Positions 11,922 through 22,922 of a DNA stretch of 23,764 nucleotides are shown one piece after another. The notes under the pieces are model-generated. The model made no database searches, had not been told where the DNA came from, and was given only the letters and a program-made list of their open reading frames with translations. Each line of letters starts with the position of its first letter. Positions within the stretch are counted from its first letter, which is position 1. The translations under genes and the position numbers were made by a program. This DNA comes from a virus. The DNA lies in IMG/VR virus record IMGVR_UViG_3300025154_000385, positions 1-23,764 of that record; one strand, written 5' to 3'.

Positions 11922-12178
11922 TGCTCACAACTTTCATCCCAGCGCGTATCAACCCAAAGCGGCCTGCCCAAACCCGCCGCCTCTTCTGATTTAAGCAGGC
12001 ACGAGGACTTGAACTTCGAGGAGTTCGCCCCGGCCCCTTCGCGGCCCCTCCAGTGCTGGCAGGATTTGCAAATTCCGTCAAGGTAGGTGACGCGGGGTTT
12101 GTGTGCGAGCGGCTCATTGAGCGCCGCGCAAAATGTGAGGACGATGTCAGGCATGTAATTGAACTGGGAGCAGCTCAT
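11900..12178 (-). CDS. Small Cys-rich protein, probable zinc binder
   Basis: A 92-residue protein with the pattern GICKSCQHWRG (Cys 37 and 40), then Cys 60 in KSSCLL and Cys 84 in DESCEQWE. A CxxCxHW box followed by two single cysteines and a tryptophan is a layout I associate with small phage proteins that probably bind one zinc ion. Its ATG overlaps the stop of the helicase-loader gene as ATGA, with AGGAG upstream at a rather long distance. A competing minus frame starting at 12117 overlaps it but has no coupled start. The role is unknown. Its place between a helicase loader and an SNF2 helicase suggests a replication accessory function, by inference only. Confidence 0.7.
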   Translation of the reverse strand: MSCSQFNYMPDIVLTFCAALNEPLAHKPRVTYLDGICKSCQHWRGREGAGANSSKFKSSCLLKSEEAAGLGRPLWVDTRWDESCEQWEKRRD

Positions 12179-13152
12179 TTTGTTTTTGCCTCTCCTGTTT
12201 TTTGGGAATCAAGCGCAGCCTTGTTTTCTTTTTTATCCCACGTCCTAAGCGAGTTATGCCCGAAATAAATCTGCGGCCCGCTTTTGAATCTATCCGCCAC
12301 CGCGTCCCAGGGATCGCCCCATGCCGCGATTTGGTCTAGCGAGGCATTACAGGCCAGCAGGACGGGCTTGAGATTTTCATATCGCAAGTTTATGAGGTTG
12401 TAAAAAGTAGTGGACTTGTAGGGTGTCCGATTGATTTTATCCGCGTCGTCAAGAATCAAGAGATCGGCAAGGTAGAGCCGATCAAGGATTTCGTTTTCTG
12501 ATTCATCGCTTGCAGGGTCATTCGAGGCCGCAAGTTTTTTCAGAAGCATCTCACCCTCGTAATAGGCGACAGTGACGTGATGTTTTTCACAGTGCTGTCG
12601 GACGCCAAGGCAAAGAAATGATTTTCCCGTTCCTTTCCCGCCGTAAATAAAACACGGGGAGCCTTCATGTTTCGGGTTTTTCAGGATCGGCCCAAGCCAC
12701 TCAGACATGACTCTGGTTTTGATCGTTGAAAGAGCCGTACGGGTTGCCGGTGGAAATTGATTCTGCGCTTCGCGGGCGGCTTGCAGATAGCGATGACCCG
12801 TGGGGGTCGAGTCTTGCCGGATAGATTCTCCCACGGCGGCGACGTGGTCTTGCTGGAGTCGCGCCACCATGTTTGGACAGGCACGGGTAGTCGGGCAATA
12901 GATGGATTCACGGGCGATATTGAGACAGGTAGGGCGAAAGGAAATAGAAACGCCACTGGAGTCCGTGCTTCGCTTCTGGATTATTTTTGCCCGCTCGACA
13001 AGAGCATCTTCGGCTGACAGGTGCGCGAGTTCCAGGAAGGCGGTTCGCCAGTTCCAACGCTCCCTCCATTCGAGGGCTTCGATAGGGGCATCGAGCAGAC
13101 AGGCTTCGCGCTTTGGCATTCCGCAATGTTTGCAAGATTGAACAGCAGTCAT
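12175..13152 (-). CDS. DnaC/IstB-type helicase loader, AAA+ ATPase
   Basis: A 325-residue AAA+ protein. Walker A is IYGGKGTGKSFLC near residues 169-181, Walker B is LLILDDADKI near 231-240, sensor 1 lies in VLLACNASLD near 264-273, and a DRF near 287-289 could hold a sensor or arginine-finger residue. This matches the DnaC/IstB group that delivers the replicative helicase to single-stranded DNA. The first 95 residues are unusual for the family: they contain SCKHC at 6-10 and a later set C76, C86 and C92, which could bind zinc or an iron-sulfur cluster. The start ATG overlaps the DUF1376 gene's stop as ATGA. No replicative helicase is encoded here, so it may load the host one. A primosomal role fits the upstream initiator-like gene. 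Confidence 0.88.
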   Translation of the reverse strand: MTAVQSCKHCGMPKREACLLDAPIEALEWRERWNWRTAFLELAHLSAEDALVERAKIIQKRSTDSSGVSISFRPTCLNIARESIYCPTTRACPNMVARLQQDHVAAVGESIRQDSTPTGHRYLQAAREAQNQFPPATRTALSTIKTRVMSEWLGPILKNPKHEGSPCFIYGGKGTGKSFLCLGVRQHCEKHHVTVAYYEGEMLLKKLAASNDPASDESENEILDRLYLADLLILDDADKINRTPYKSTTFYNLINLRYENLKPVLLACNASLDQIAAWGDPWDAVADRFKSGPQIYFGHNSLRTWDKKENKAALDSQKTGEAKTK

Positions 13153-14306
13153 ATCGGGCCTACACTTCTATGGCCTTTAAGGAATTGCTCCGTCTCGGCC
13201 CTTGTGACTTCGGGTTGTTTGATTTCTGCGGCGGCGAGTTCTGCGTCGCGTTTATCGGCAGCGTCTGCCAGTTCGGTCGCTGTCGGGCACGGCCTTCGTC
13301 GTTGCGCTTCCTCAGCCTCGCGCTCGGCAAGCCAAGCCTGTGTTTCTTCACGCTCCTTCGCGTCTTCGGCATCCCACAGGGCAATTTCTTCCGGCGTTGG
13401 CGTCTTCATAGGCGGGGCCGTCTTTTTCTGGGCATCCTTCTGCCCGTTGCCCGCCCGCCACTTTTGCGCTTTCTGGATAAGCGTTGACTTCTGGCGGATA
13501 AGGGCGTGGGTGTATCCGCGCTTCATATTCCCAAGCCCGAAAGCCCAGTCCGGGTCAGCGGCGGGGTCTGCCAAGTACTCGAGCAGCAGGTTGACCTGTC
13601 CAAGCCCGGTGTCGTCGAGGATGGTGTCCATGACCCCGGCAAAGAAAAGGGCGACAGCTTGGGAGCCGTGAGTTCCCCCGTCGCGGGTTGCTCTGAGGTC
13701 AGCATAGAGTGTTCCAAGGTTGACGGCTTCTGGGTGTCGGTATTTGTGGGGTAGTTTGTTGGTTTTTTCTTTGTTTTTTTGTTGTGTTTTTTTTGTGGGG
13801 GTAGGGGGTTCTTTTTCTTTCTTTGAAGATGAAGAAGAAGATGAAGAAGAAGATGAAGAAGAAGAGCACGACCAATCGTTAGACGATTGGTTAGACGATT
13901 GGTTAGACGATTGGTTAGACGGATCGTTATCGTTTTCTCTCTCAGCAATCCTCTGTTGGCGAGCCAGAACTCCAGCCCTCGACGCTGATTCTCTTCGACT
14001 TCTGCGCTCCGCCTGTGCTTCTTTTTGCTTTTGTAGGCGGTCGTTGAAGTAATACTCCGCCCCGTCAATAGTCCTTCGATCAAAATGCTGTTCAATGGTC
14101 GGCCATGCTTCAGCAAGCTCGGATTCGGTACAACCAATCATTGAACGAATCGTTGAACGATTGGTTGGCAATCCCCTTGACATCGGGTAAGTCCAGAACT
14201 GATCGAGTAGATCACGGTAAATCGCACGCGCAACAAGAGACATTTCGTGGCGCGTGCCGCTCGCAAGCCAATCCTTCGGATACCACTGATACGCTGGGGC
14301 GTCCAT
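13149..14306 (-). CDS. DUF1376-type replication initiator-like protein
   Basis: A 385-residue protein. Residues about 5-95 (YQWYPKDWLASGTRHEMSLV onwards, including RAIYRDLLDQFW) match the DUF1376/YdaU N-terminal domain found in phage proteins that sit before DnaC-like loaders and are thought to start replication. Residues about 129-161 are low complexity: SNQ repeats encoded by 12-bp DNA repeats, followed by a long serine run. A basic linker (KKEKEPPTPTKKTQQ) then leads to a helical C-terminal half rich in glutamate and alanine. This is the lambda-O style layout: DNA-binding N-terminus, linker, and a C-terminus that would contact the loader. The start has GAAAGGG upstream. The gene overlaps the loader by ATGA. 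The candidate origin inside it is listed separately. Confidence 0.85.
   Translation of the reverse strand: MDAPAYQWYPKDWLASGTRHEMSLVARAIYRDLLDQFWTYPMSRGLPTNRSTIRSMIGCTESELAEAWPTIEQHFDRRTIDGAEYYFNDRLQKQKEAQAERRSRRESASRAGVLARQQRIAERENDNDPSNQSSNQSSNQSSNDWSCSSSSSSSSSSSSSSKKEKEPPTPTKKTQQKNKEKTNKLPHKYRHPEAVNLGTLYADLRATRDGGTHGSQAVALFFAGVMDTILDDTGLGQVNLLLEYLADPAADPDWAFGLGNMKRGYTHALIRQKSTLIQKAQKWRAGNGQKDAQKKTAPPMKTPTPEEIALWDAEDAKEREETQAWLAEREAEEAQRRRPCPTATELADAADKRDAELAAAEIKQPEVTRAETEQFLKGHRSVGPI
13828..13926. repeat. 12-bp iteron-like repeats and purine-rich tract, candidate replication origin
   Basis: Three exact tandem copies of TTAGACGATTGG occupy 13879-13890, 13891-13902 and 13903-13914, and a partial fourth runs to 13926. 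The first copy forms an inverted repeat with the preceding bases: CCAATCGT, three bases, ACGATTGG. Next to them lie three exact copies of GATGAAGAAGAA (13828-13863), and beyond that a T-rich stretch (about 13760-13820) giving strong strand asymmetry. Iterons next to an easily melted, asymmetric tract inside an initiator gene is the layout of the lambda origin. The repeats are in frame and encode SNQS units and serines, so a coding explanation is also possible. Confidence 0.55.
14141..14164. repeat. Second pair of 12-bp iteron-related repeats
   Basis: TTGAACGAATCG (14141-14152) is followed directly by TTGAACGATTGG (14153-14164), with CCAATCA just before at 14134-14140. The second copy differs from the main iteron TTAGACGATTGG at two positions. 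It lies in the part of the same gene encoding the DUF1376 domain, where the protein is not low complexity, so coding bias does not easily explain the match. It may be a second initiator-binding site about 240 bp from the first. Confidence 0.45.
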
Positions 14307-14609: not shown

Positions 14610-14957
14610 TCAAGAATTTTCTTTAACACCCTCCACCGCCCCGATCACGTCCTCCAGACTCCGAACCTCCACGTAAAGCCCCCCGGCAGCGCGAATAGCA
14701 TCCCTCATCCGCCTCTGCTCGGTGCCCAACGCTCCTTTCCCGGTCTTGATCTCAAGGCCCAGAAAAAGACCACACGGCGGTAGCACGGCGGTAATATCAG
14801 GCCAGCCCGCCGTCGCCTGAGACCTGCGCCGCGAACCATCGGGGGCAAGGTGCGCCCCCGAATCCGTGACACTGAAAGGGATTCTCTTGATTGAGAGATA
14901 CGCGCAGACCGAACGGACAAGCTGACTATGAAGGCTCCGTTGGTTAGTGGCTCCCAC
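14610..14957 (-). CDS. VRR-NUC domain nuclease
   Basis: A 115-residue stand-alone nuclease of the PD-(D/E)XK superfamily. GWPDITAVLP places the first catalytic aspartate at about residue 54. FLGLEIKTGKG supplies the E-x-K pair at 69 and 71, and Gln 81 in GTEQRRM completes the usual VRR-NUC set. A basic loop, DGSRRRSQATA, precedes the active site. Related phage enzymes act on branched DNA such as Holliday junctions, or nick DNA during replication and packaging. The start is GTG at 14957 with GGAGG six bases upstream, overlapping the end of the previous gene by 14 bases. The length is typical for phage single-domain VRR-NUC proteins, and no active-site residue is missing. Confidence 0.88.
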   Translation of the reverse strand: MGATNQRSLHSQLVRSVCAYLSIKRIPFSVTDSGAHLAPDGSRRRSQATAGWPDITAVLPPCGLFLGLEIKTGKGALGTEQRRMRDAIRAAGGLYVEVRSLEDVIGAVEGVKENS

Positions 14958-15300
14958 AGCGAACCTCCAACGCCGGGGTCTTCGGCCCTTCGCCCCGAAA
15001 GGATTCTGGTTTCTCCCCCCGCCTCTTCCACGCCACGCGCCGCTTCACCAATTGCCTGTATTTTGCCACAACCTCGCCCGTGACGTGTCTTGCCCCGAAC
15101 CTACGGGCGATCATGTCTAGGATCGAAGCGGTGGCCTTGTCTGCCGCCGTCCAGGGGGCCGGATCGTCGCGCTTTTCGGCGGCGGTTCGCTCGGCGGTAT
15201 GAATCCGCATGACAATCCCTTGGTTGCTCAGATAGCCGAGCCGGTGGAGGGCCGGTTCAAAACCAGCATCGCAGAGGGTAAGAAATTCAAGAGCGGTCAT
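14944..15300 (-). CDS. Hypothetical protein upstream of the VRR-NUC gene
   Basis: A 118-residue basic protein beginning MTALEFLTLCDAGFEPALHR. The C-terminal half is rich in arginine and lysine (AKYRQLVKRRVAWKRRGEKP), so nucleic-acid binding is plausible. The middle (AADKATASILDMIARRFG) should be helical. No metal-binding or catalytic motif is evident and I do not recognise the family. The ATG has GGGAGG five bases upstream, and the gene overlaps the nuclease gene by 14 bases, suggesting coupled expression. Downstream of the pentamer array at 15329-15408, it is the first gene of the replication block. Confidence 0.72.
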   Translation of the reverse strand: MTALEFLTLCDAGFEPALHRLGYLSNQGIVMRIHTAERTAAEKRDDPAPWTAADKATASILDMIARRFGARHVTGEVVAKYRQLVKRRVAWKRRGEKPESFRGEGPKTPALEVRCGSH

Positions 15301-15328
15301 TTAAGCCTCCCATATTTGAAAGAATCTG

Positions 15329-15408
15329 TGCTATGCTATACAGTGCAACGCAGCGCCCCGCCGGACAAAGCGAAGCTACGCGATGCCAAACTACGCGGAG
15401 CAATGCTA
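15329..15408. repeat. Pentamer-phased NGCNN array, 16 units
   Basis: Read in steps of five from 15329, the sequence is TGCTA TGCTA TACAG TGCAA, CGCAG CGCCC CGCCG GACAA, AGCGA AGCTA CGCGA TGCCA, AACTA CGCGG AGCAA TGCTA. C is third in 16 of 16 units, and G is second in 13 of 16. The other positions vary, so this is a phase rather than a simple tandem copy. It ends two bases before the stop codon (15411-15413) of the 179-residue gene. A five-base period does not match codons, and no convincing reading frame uses it. Confidence 0.8.
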
Positions 15409-15410
15409 CG

Positions 15411-15950
15411 TTAAACCTTCCAAAGTGTTACAACCGCTCTCCCAAACGATCCCTTACACTCCGGGCGGAAGGCCATAATCCCACAGCGGTTAAAAGTCTC
15501 GTCCACGACATGCCGAATCTGCTCCTCGCTCAAAAGCACATCGTCCCATTCCACGAAGAAACTCAATGCCCACGAATCGAACCGATAGCGATGGGCCATA
15601 ACCCGGACGCCCTTGCCGACATTGTGATTGACAACCGTGCGGGAATCAATTTCCGGCGTCTGATTGTCTAAGATCAAGTCGGCGGGCGTGACAAAGACGC
15701 AAGCCGCCACCACCTTTTGCAAACTCCCTCGGCCCTTGCCTTTGCAATAGGTCGCGCCACTAATAAGAGCGCGTTGAACATTGGCCGAGGGAACATAAAA
15801 CTGTTTTTCTTTCGGCGTCCGATAGGCCACATATTCAGCCTGCTCTTTTACCTGGCGCTTGTTCATTCCCTCAATTTGTACTGCTGGATACGCGCACATG
15901 AGAAGCGGGGTGATTCCCTTGATTGAAACTTCTGCTTTCTGAGTCGGCAT
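15411..15950 (-). CDS. Conserved-looking phage protein, possible RAMP/Cas7-like fold
   Basis: A 179-residue protein with AAGGAG before the ATG. It has the appearance of a phage protein group I have seen but cannot name: an opening beta strand VSIKGITPLLMCAYP, a central EAEYVAYRTPKE-like region followed by FYVPSANVQRALISGA near 51-66, IDSRTVVNHNVGKGVRVMAH near 101-120, a strand WALSFFVEWDDVLLSEE, and a final FRPECKGSFGRAVVTLW near 161-177. A C-terminal glycine-rich GSFGR loop with alternating strands recalls RRM/RAMP-type nucleic-acid-binding folds, but that is inference only. It stands alone between two pentamer arrays, in a gap between the small-gene cluster and the replication genes. No catalytic residues are evident. 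Confidence 0.72.
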   Translation of the reverse strand: MPTQKAEVSIKGITPLLMCAYPAVQIEGMNKRQVKEQAEYVAYRTPKEKQFYVPSANVQRALISGATYCKGKGRGSLQKVVAACVFVTPADLILDNQTPEIDSRTVVNHNVGKGVRVMAHRYRFDSWALSFFVEWDDVLLSEEQIRHVVDETFNRCGIMAFRPECKGSFGRAVVTLWKV

Positions 15951-15972: not shown

Positions 15973-16037
15973 GGCTGTGCTATGCTTTGCAGTACCCGGC
16001 GATGCCACGCGAAGCGCCGCGCCGCGTCACCTAGCTA
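15973..16037. repeat. Pentamer-phased NGCNN array, 13 units
   Basis: From 15973 the sequence divides into GGCTG TGCTA TGCTT TGCAG, TACCC GGCGA TGCCA CGCGA, AGCGC CGCGC CGCGT CACCT, AGCTA. C is third in 13 of 13 units and G is second in 11 of 13. This is the same periodicity as the array at 15329-15408, on the other side of the 179-residue gene and in the same orientation. It lies between that gene's ribosome-binding site and the end of the upstream gene. Confidence 0.78.
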
Positions 16038-21165: not shown

Positions 21166-22134
21166 TTAAACCGCGACTTCTTTTTTCTCCGCCTCCACAG
21201 CAAGCCGCTCAAACTTCACGCTCCACGTTTCAATAGTGTGCGCCTCTTGTGCCTTGAAAGTTTTTGTCCCCTGTTCACCCCGGACTATCCAGTCGCCACA
21301 TAACGCAGACTCAATGCCCCGGAAGCGTTTCTTGAGTTTTCCATCAAGGGAATTATATTCCTTGCCCGTCTCCCTAAGTTCACCGAAACGGTCAAGGTCT
21401 GCTTGCAGATCGGCATCTTCGATCACGCTTGCCCCCGCGCCGGTATTGATCGGGGGATTACAGGCTCGCCCGAAGGCCCAACACCGGAAACAAACCGACG
21501 GGTCTTTGTGGAAGTCGGGCAATGTTCCTTCGGCAATATGGGCAACGGAGTTTTCACATCGTTTCAAAATCTTTTCCATCGCCTCAAAATCGAGACTAAC
21601 CGGAATGAGCTTCCAATGCCCCAAACAGTCATCAAGCAGAAACAGCCCTTCCTCTAAGTTGTTGCCATAAAGATAGGTCTGGAGTTGACGCGGATATTTC
21701 GCCGCCCAATGGAATTTGTTGAAGTCATCGGCGGTTTCAATCCGCGCAAAGATGTTCGGATTCAGACTCTTAACCTCGAAAGGGAAGTCCTTGCGGTCAA
21801 CAGAAATAAACCCGTCCACGCGCCCGCGCACAACGATACGCCCCACCTTATCCTTCAATTCAAACGGTGTCCGCTCCACGCGCACCGTAAAGCCCAAGTC
21901 TGCCAGTTCACGGACTACGGCATTTTCGATTAAGTTTCCCCGCTCGAAACGGGCCTTTAGTTCGCTATCGGGTAATGGACGGTCTTTCCAATTCTGGATT
22001 GCAAGAACCATTTCGCGCTCGCACTCGCCGAGGTCGGAGGCTATCGGGTGTGAGCGTGGATAAGCGGAGACGCGGGCGGTCAGAGCCTCGCGTCTCCTCA
22101 TTTCGATTTGTTGAATCAGATCAGCAGCGTTCAT
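21166..22134 (-). CDS. Cas4/RecB-like PD-(D/E)XK exonuclease with four cysteines
   Basis: I use the ATG at 22134, which overlaps the upstream stop as TAATG and has GGAGGG before it (322 residues). An earlier in-frame codon at 22161 is not supported. The nuclease core is readable: VVRGRVDGFIS with the catalytic aspartate near residue 107, FPFEVKSLNP with the E-x-K near 120-122, and YPRQLQTYLYG giving the RecB-type Q-x-x-x-Y motif near 150-154. One cysteine (LGECERE, near 38) and three later ones (CFRCWAFGRAC, near 215-225) are arranged as in Cas4 and AddB nucleases, which hold a 4Fe-4S cluster. In phages such enzymes resect DNA ends for recombination. No other Cas genes or CRISPR arrays are present. 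Confidence 0.87.
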   Translation of the reverse strand: MNAADLIQQIEMRRREALTARVSAYPRSHPIASDLGECEREMVLAIQNWKDRPLPDSELKARFERGNLIENAVVRELADLGFTVRVERTPFELKDKVGRIVVRGRVDGFISVDRKDFPFEVKSLNPNIFARIETADDFNKFHWAAKYPRQLQTYLYGNNLEEGLFLLDDCLGHWKLIPVSLDFEAMEKILKRCENSVAHIAEGTLPDFHKDPSVCFRCWAFGRACNPPINTGAGASVIEDADLQADLDRFGELRETGKEYNSLDGKLKKRFRGIESALCGDWIVRGEQGTKTFKAQEAHTIETWSVKFERLAVEAEKKEVAV

Positions 22135-22922
22135 TATTCCTTGCCCTCCGCCCAAGTGCAAAGAGCCTCGTAATGTTTCCTCTGAATCTCGCGGGTGTGG
22201 TCAACCCCCGCAACCTCTTTGACCTTGGTACGAAGATCATCGTCGCTGATTCCCGATCCCTTCGCAATCGCGTAAAGCCGTTTCGCTTGAGCTTCGGAAA
22301 TCACGTCGCCTTGGCTCTCAAGCGTTTTGCTTTTCGCCGAGTAGTCAATCTTGCCGATCTTGTCGGGGTTCAATCCGGCGGCGGCAAGAATCTCAGGACA
22401 TGGATTGCGCACGCCCGCGATGCGGGTTACGGCATTGACGATCCAGTTGGAATACGCAGCTTTCTTCACGTCGCCTTCTCCGGTGAAAGGATTCCACTTG
22501 GGGCGGGCATTGAAAAATTGGTCTTTGGAATCGCAGCATCCCACGTACCACCCCCGCCGTCCCAGAGCCTTTGATTCCACAAAGCCCTCACACCAGTAAA
22601 TGTAATAAGGACTTCCGGCGTCATCTACCTTGTCATCGCGGTAAAGGTGGGGCTTCTCGCAATTGATTCCGAGCGGGTTCATAAGTTTCTCCGCGCCCGA
22701 CGATTGGAGGCAAAACGACTTGCCCTGATTGATCCAGTCGCTTTCGTGTGTCAGCCGAAAACACGCGGCCTGAAATCGCTTGTAAACCTGAATTCCTTTC
22801 TCGAATTTCCCGACGTAATCTTCGGTTAGTAGTGAAGGAAGGGCCGGGCCTTCCTCAATTGGTTCGATTCTCGCCAAGTCAGCGACTTGGTTTTCCGCGT
22901 CCGATGTTCCTACTATTGTCAT
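22134..22922 (-). CDS. Recombination-module phage protein, function not established
   Basis: A 262-residue protein with AAGGAG before its ATG, overlapping the Cas4-like nuclease gene as TAATG. The N-terminal third is helical and acidic. The middle has a conserved-looking SFCLQSSGAEKLMNPLGINC segment, followed by beta strands with YYIYWCEGFVESKALGRRGW and VGCCDSKDQFF, then a helical DVKKAAYSNWIVNAVTRIAG. The C-terminus (ISEAQAKRLYAIAKGSGISD) resembles a short helical DNA-binding tail seen in several phage recombination proteins. The close coupling to an exonuclease is the typical arrangement for a single-strand annealing protein, so that is a reasonable hypothesis, but no Erf, RecT or Rad52 motif is obvious to me. 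Confidence 0.75.
   Translation of the reverse strand: MTIVGTSDAENQVADLARIEPIEEGPALPSLLTEDYVGKFEKGIQVYKRFQAACFRLTHESDWINQGKSFCLQSSGAEKLMNPLGINCEKPHLYRDDKVDDAGSPYYIYWCEGFVESKALGRRGWYVGCCDSKDQFFNARPKWNPFTGEGDVKKAAYSNWIVNAVTRIAGVRNPCPEILAAAGLNPDKIGKIDYSAKSKTLESQGDVISEAQAKRLYAIAKGSGISDDDLRTKVKEVAGVDHTREIQRKHYEALCTWAEGKE

What the first reader, a model, noticed from the sequence alone, without database searches (positions are those of the whole stretch)
15973..16037. A second NGCNN array flanks the other side of the same gene
Thirteen units with the same rule (C third in all 13, G second in 11) lie upstream of the 179-residue gene, so the gene is bracketed by two arrays in the same orientation. Unit strings TGCTATGCT and CGATGCCA are shared. 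Bracketing suggests a cassette: recombination arms for gene exchange, an autoregulatory binding site, or a mobile unit. It is very unlikely that two independent random arrays would fall exactly on the edges of one gene.
Basis: partly seen in the sequence, partly recalled or inferred. Interest (0 to 1): 0.8.

Follow-up and report, generated by a model that had tools for sequence, protein, structure and literature searches.

The report
Phage VIPR guide RNAs flanking vipr
The two five-base repeat arrays around this small phage gene look like the guide-RNA genes of a VIPR system, an RNA-guided phage weapon related to CRISPR that was reported in a 2026 preprint, here in a version with a looser repeat and unknown targets.

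Summary
The array is real. It is one of only two in the window and in a near-identical 46 kb contig, and both touch the 179-codon gene. The gene's protein family (phrog_4652) matches the solved SUSP1 Vipr protein (5e-42 for the family profile; 9e-4 for this protein alone), and its model is a Csm3/Cas7-type RAMP fold. A preprint (PMC13142463) describes VIPR systems: a small RAMP protein loaded with guide RNAs (vrRNAs) made of five-base repeats, encoded in intergenic stretches beside vipr.

Blind tests agree. Of 120 viral loci chosen only by a period-5 DNA pattern, 89 encode this protein, against 1 of 120 period-6 control loci. All 8 named phages checked have arrays beside vipr. Among arrays of the common GGC form, 94 of 95 lie in vipr's sense.

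The window is a divergent member: its skeleton is NGYNN, the first G of GGYNN not being conserved. A few relatives share this, and repeat type follows the Vipr tree. No target was found under the published one-base-skip rule or a contiguous reading. Expression, loading and silencing are inferred. The recombination-cassette idea is not supported; the gene-array link is.

The parts
15974..16037 (-). Upstream array, predicted vrRNA 1: 13 NGYNN units, leader of the vipr gene
   Evidence: Period-5 scans, decoded units
15325..15412 (-). Downstream array, predicted vrRNA 2: 16-17 NGYNN units, between vipr and the 118-codon gene
   Evidence: Period-5 scans, decoded units
15975..15993 (-). Shared 3' tail segment of vrRNA 1, ACTGCAAAGCATAGCACAG
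   Evidence: Sequence; matches the tail of vrRNA 2 at 17 of 19 bases
15326..15344 (-). Shared 3' tail segment of vrRNA 2, ACTGTATAGCATAGCACAG
   Evidence: Sequence
15411..15950 (-). vipr: 179-aa RAMP (Csm3/Cas7-like) protein, phrog_4652
   Evidence: phrog_4652 E 5.8e-15; family profile hits SUSP1 Vipr 36pp_D at 5.3e-42, protein alone 9.4e-4; fold pLDDT 90.6, RAMP matches with Z up to 12.7
14944..15300 (-). 118-aa gene of unknown function whose leader carries vrRNA 2; possible accessory (vap) gene, not shown
   Evidence: ORF list; no Pfam match and no PHROG match below E 0.1; no conserved homolog beside vipr elsewhere

Best explanation
This is a VIPR system. The gene encodes a Vipr-type RAMP protein, and the two arrays are transcribed from the same strand as vrRNAs. 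Copies of the protein coat the RNA at about one per five bases and hold the conserved GY core away, so that the variable bases of each repeat can pair with matching double-stranded DNA. The complex then sits on the target gene, probably in a competing phage or satellite, and blocks its transcription. Shown here: protein family, fold, association, orientation, repeat pattern. Taken from the preprint's work on other VIPRs: RNA loading, DNA reading, silencing. Inferred for this phage: expression, targets, role.
For: Family profile matches the solved SUSP1 Vipr at 5.3e-42. Model is a Csm3/Cas7-type RAMP. 40 of 49 records chosen by the repeat alone encode the family; 89 of 120 loci against 1 of 120 controls. 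8 of 8 named phages chosen by protein have arrays beside the gene. Arrays keep the gene's sense, 94 to 1, at a median of 86 nt. Repeat skeleton follows the Vipr tree, 9 changes against 21.3 shuffled. The anatomy matches the published system.
Against: The first G of the published GGY core is not conserved here (0.02 bit). One of the G-loop glycines is replaced: GIM where the family has GxG. No vap gene recognised, no strong tail structure (fold z -1.5 and -0.6), no target found. No expression data.
Confidence: 0.9

Rival explanations
1. The protein binds its own leader and the next gene's leader as an autoregulatory RNA or DNA operator; the variable bases carry no target information.
For: Both arrays lie directly before ribosome-binding sites; three of five bases are free in this class; no target was found.
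Against: Relatives are reported to use such RNAs as reprogrammable guides. Arrays are often only downstream of the gene (43 of 91 loci), where they are not its leader.
Confidence: 0.07
2. A decayed VIPR: a former guide system losing its repeat constraint.
For: Long branch, changed G-loop residue, relaxed first G, no target found.
Against: The open frame is intact; GY is kept in all units of the sense reading, which decay would not spare; the same skeleton recurs in other lineages (L044, L023 group, L121).
Confidence: 0.06
3. Recombination arms or a mobile gene cassette.
For: Two arrays bracket one gene and share short strings.
Against: The arrays are not copies of each other outside the tail; side and number vary; the orientation is fixed; the gene is the same family everywhere rather than varied cargo.
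Confidence: 0.02

Closest known systems
VIPR system of Escherichia phage SUSP1 (PMC13142463; PDB 36pp; KT454805)
   Same: Homologous RAMP protein of about 20 kDa; period-5 arrays in the gene's sense in the flanking intergenic stretches
   Different: SUSP1: GGY core, four vrRNAs, vap1 gene, structured tail. Window: NGY core, two vrRNAs, no recognised vap, simple 19-nt tail merging into a ribosome-binding site
Listonella phage phiHSIC ORF22 locus
   Same: Homolog at 26% identity with two arrays beside it
   Different: Both arrays are downstream; skeleton GCA rather than NGY
IMG/VR loci L044 and L023 (NGY class)
   Same: L044 is the nearest relative of the window protein (33%); both have the NGYNN skeleton
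   Different: L044 has more and longer arrays; L023 has one array found, directly before another gene's ribosome-binding site
Csm3/Cas7 RAMPs of type III CRISPR-Cas
   Same: Fold
   Different: No CRISPR array or other cas subunits recognised beside the gene; five-base rather than six-base period; about 11% identity

Membership tests
VIPR system | Vipr protein: minimal single-domain RAMP, homologous to SUSP1 Vipr | tested here: met
   36pp_D at 5.3e-42 by family profile and 9.4e-4 alone; RAMP fold
VIPR system | vrRNAs of about 9-16 five-base repeats, GGY/NN or a related consensus, in intergenic stretches flanking vipr | tested here: met
   13 and 16-17 units on the two sides, as a related consensus: strict GGY is not kept, the core is NGY
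VIPR system | Glycine-rich loop | tested here: inconclusive
   C-terminal G...RP...GSFGR is present, but one of the two near-invariant glycines reads M
VIPR system | Constant 3' tail after the repeats | tested here: inconclusive
   Both arrays end in a shared 19-nt segment, but no significant structure
VIPR system | Accessory vap gene (typical, not universal) | tested here: inconclusive
   118-aa neighbour without family match; vap sequences not at hand
VIPR system | vrRNA expressed and bound by Vipr | not testable with these tools
   Needs small-RNA sequencing and pull-down
VIPR system | Targets read with a one-base skip | tested here: inconclusive
   No target above chance
CRISPR-Cas | CRISPR array of long repeats and spacers beside several cas genes | tested here: not met
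   Tandem-repeat scan shows no such array, and the tested neighbours match no cas family apart from a Cas4-domain exonuclease of phage recombination type about 5 kb away
Mobile cassette with recombination arms | Matching arms around varied cargo, empty sites | tested here: inconclusive
   Arms do not match outside the tail and the cargo is always the same family; empty sites not examined

The most novel reading that the evidence does not exclude
In the NGY class of VIPR (window, L044, the L023 group, L121) the base that is always G in the published repeat is free to vary and could read the target base that other VIPRs skip. The guide would then be a continuous code of three letters per repeat. 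A basic residue present in 65 of 70 other Viprs is A or C at position 119 in all four NGY rows and may be what releases that base.
Probability: 0.15. Interest if true: 0.8.

Novelty: new member of a known kind. Interest (0 to 1): 0.5.

Why it matters
It identifies a family so far labelled 'unknown function' in PHROGs, and its strange intergenic arrays, as an RNA-guided inter-phage system in a divergent phage. It also gives an array-only DNA pattern that recovers such systems without protein similarity. The division of repeat skeletons into GGC, CGC, GCA and NGY classes that follow the Vipr tree is a direct handle on how the protein recognises its guide, and the NGY class asks whether the one-base skip is universal. 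The preprint mentions related consensus repeats in a supplementary figure that could not be read here, so the NGY class may already be among its seven types.

Tried and rejected
Literature search for pentanucleotide arrays in phages by general words or literal repeats gave nothing relevant. Targets: exact 8-unit cores under the skip rule in IMG/VR (77, 4 and 2 matches; none extends convincingly beyond the core), a 10-unit core in GTDB genomes (1 match, no extension), BLAST of contiguous guides against phages (best E 0.05, not convincing), and 9-unit cores of two other NGY loci (0 and 2 matches). In the loci held, no skip length stands out from shuffles; the down and up guides at skip 1 are inflated because those loci were fetched with them. 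Rfam: no match. Stop codons in the decoded triplets: not decisive. Promoter and terminator scans: nothing beyond chance. Residue 119 ties for first among columns associated with NGY, but does not survive correction for 2864 tests.

Full report
Observation. A scan for GC spaced by five bases ranks the reported array (15974 onward) and its partner (15325-15414) first in the window, each with 24 of 26 core letters over 13 units; the best of 200 Markov shuffles reaches 20. A chained scan finds these two and nothing else in the window, with none in shuffles. The window lies in a 46 kb IMG/VR contig that differs at 16 sites, none in this locus, and that contig also has only these two arrays. On the gene strand the core is G followed by C or T in every unit, so the repeat is NGYNN. 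Both arrays end, on the gene strand, in nearly the same 19-nt segment ACTGYAWAGCATAGCACAG and then run into a ribosome-binding site.

The gene. The 179-aa product has no credible Pfam match and belongs to PHROG 4652, unknown function. Its only relative in named phages by direct search is phiHSIC ORF22 at 26% identity. phiHSIC has exactly two period-5 arrays in 38 kb, and both lie immediately 3' of ORF22. That coincidence prompted a blind test.

Blind association. A DNA pattern of ten GC units spaced by five was run over IMG/VR without using any protein. Of 49 such records searched whole, 40 encode phrog_4652; the 14 control genomes have none. With a profile grown from the window protein, 89 of 120 array loci contain a homolog, against 1 of 120 loci fetched with a period-6 control pattern. 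Several of the 31 array loci without one are short or cut, and some are simple repeats. In the other direction, phages picked by protein carry arrays: LESphi2, Mushroom, MakoManhole, Trine, UmaThurman, Brocalys, phiHSIC and SUSP1, 8 of 8. The control locus with a homolog, L245, showed no array.

Geometry. Over 91 loci the arrays lie a median of 86 nt from the gene, 94% within 1 kb, where 28% of the DNA lies. GGC-type arrays run in the sense of the gene in 94 cases and against it in 1. Arrays are upstream only in 18 loci, downstream only in 43, on both sides in 30. Strand locking points to RNA; the variable placement argues against recombination arms.

Identity. The 74-member profile hits PDB 36pp_D, 'SUSP1 Vipr protein', at 5.3e-42; the window protein alone hits it at 9.4e-4. 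AlphaFold2 gives pLDDT 90.6. Nearest solved folds are Csm3 and other Cas7-type RAMPs, Z up to 12.7. The preprint PMC13142463 reports VIPR: a minimal RAMP protein, vrRNAs of 9-16 YNNGG repeats encoded in the intergenic stretches flanking vipr, reading of double-stranded DNA through the NN bases with one target base skipped per repeat, no PAM, transcriptional repression, and targets mostly in competing phages and satellites. SUSP1's record shows GGY arrays in sense on both sides of its vipr gene and the gene next to it (read by eye, because the GC-tuned scan missed the GGT arrays). The window locus matches this anatomy.

What differs. Per-locus letter counts give four skeletons: GGC (62 of the 84 rows on the tree), CGC (8), GCA (7) and NGC/NGY (7). 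They cluster on the Vipr tree with 9 changes against 21.3 for shuffled labels, as expected if the protein reads the skeleton, although near-copies contribute to this. The window is NGY: the base before G carries 0.02 bit over 29 units, so three of five bases are free. Its nearest rows, L044 and the L023 group, are also NGY, with weak support for the grouping and a long branch. All four NGY rows of the alignment have A or C at position 119, where 65 of 70 others have R or K. This column ties for first among those tested, but does not survive correction for 2864 tests. The window's G-loop reads GIM where the family has GxG. No vap gene, structured tail or Rfam match was found.

Targets. Under the one-base-skip rule, exact 8-10 unit cores of the two arrays were sought in IMG/VR and GTDB genomes; no match extends convincingly beyond its core. 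A contiguous reading, suggested by the three free bases, gave only weak BLAST matches. Two other NGY guides gave no convincing target. The reading rule for this class is therefore open.

Conclusion. The locus is most likely a VIPR system of a known kind with a relaxed repeat. Protein family, fold, arrays, strand and association are shown here. Guide function rests on the preprint's experiments with relatives. Expression, loading and targets in this phage are inferred.

Noticed in passing
L125 (AY772740) 12164-12445: Annotated ORF21 of phage phiHSIC is an open frame read across, and antisense to, two period-5 arrays; probably an annotation artefact over vrRNAs.
   Followed up: partly
L245: A homolog of the protein in a control locus with no period-5 array found by the scans used; either an unusual skeleton or a member without arrays.
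   Followed up: partly
Array loci such as L064, L006, L007: Long open frames antisense to arrays (Ala/Pro/Cys/His-rich) recur in 51 loci and would be annotated as proteins by mistake.
   Followed up: no
window 21166-22161 and 22134-22922: Cas4-domain exonuclease (phrog_1990) next to an unidentified 262-aa gene; looks like a phage recombination module.
   Followed up: no
window 14610-14957: 115-aa VRR-NUC / Holliday-junction-resolvase-like protein (phrog_5702) two genes downstream of vipr.
   Followed up: no
window 13825-13929 and 14132-14160: 12-bp tandem repeats inside the 385-aa minus-strand gene (encoding Ser-rich and NQSS repeats).
   Followed up: no
L100 860-1352: The one locus in which a GGC-type array runs antisense to the vipr fragment; the gene is cut by the end of the contig.
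   Followed up: no
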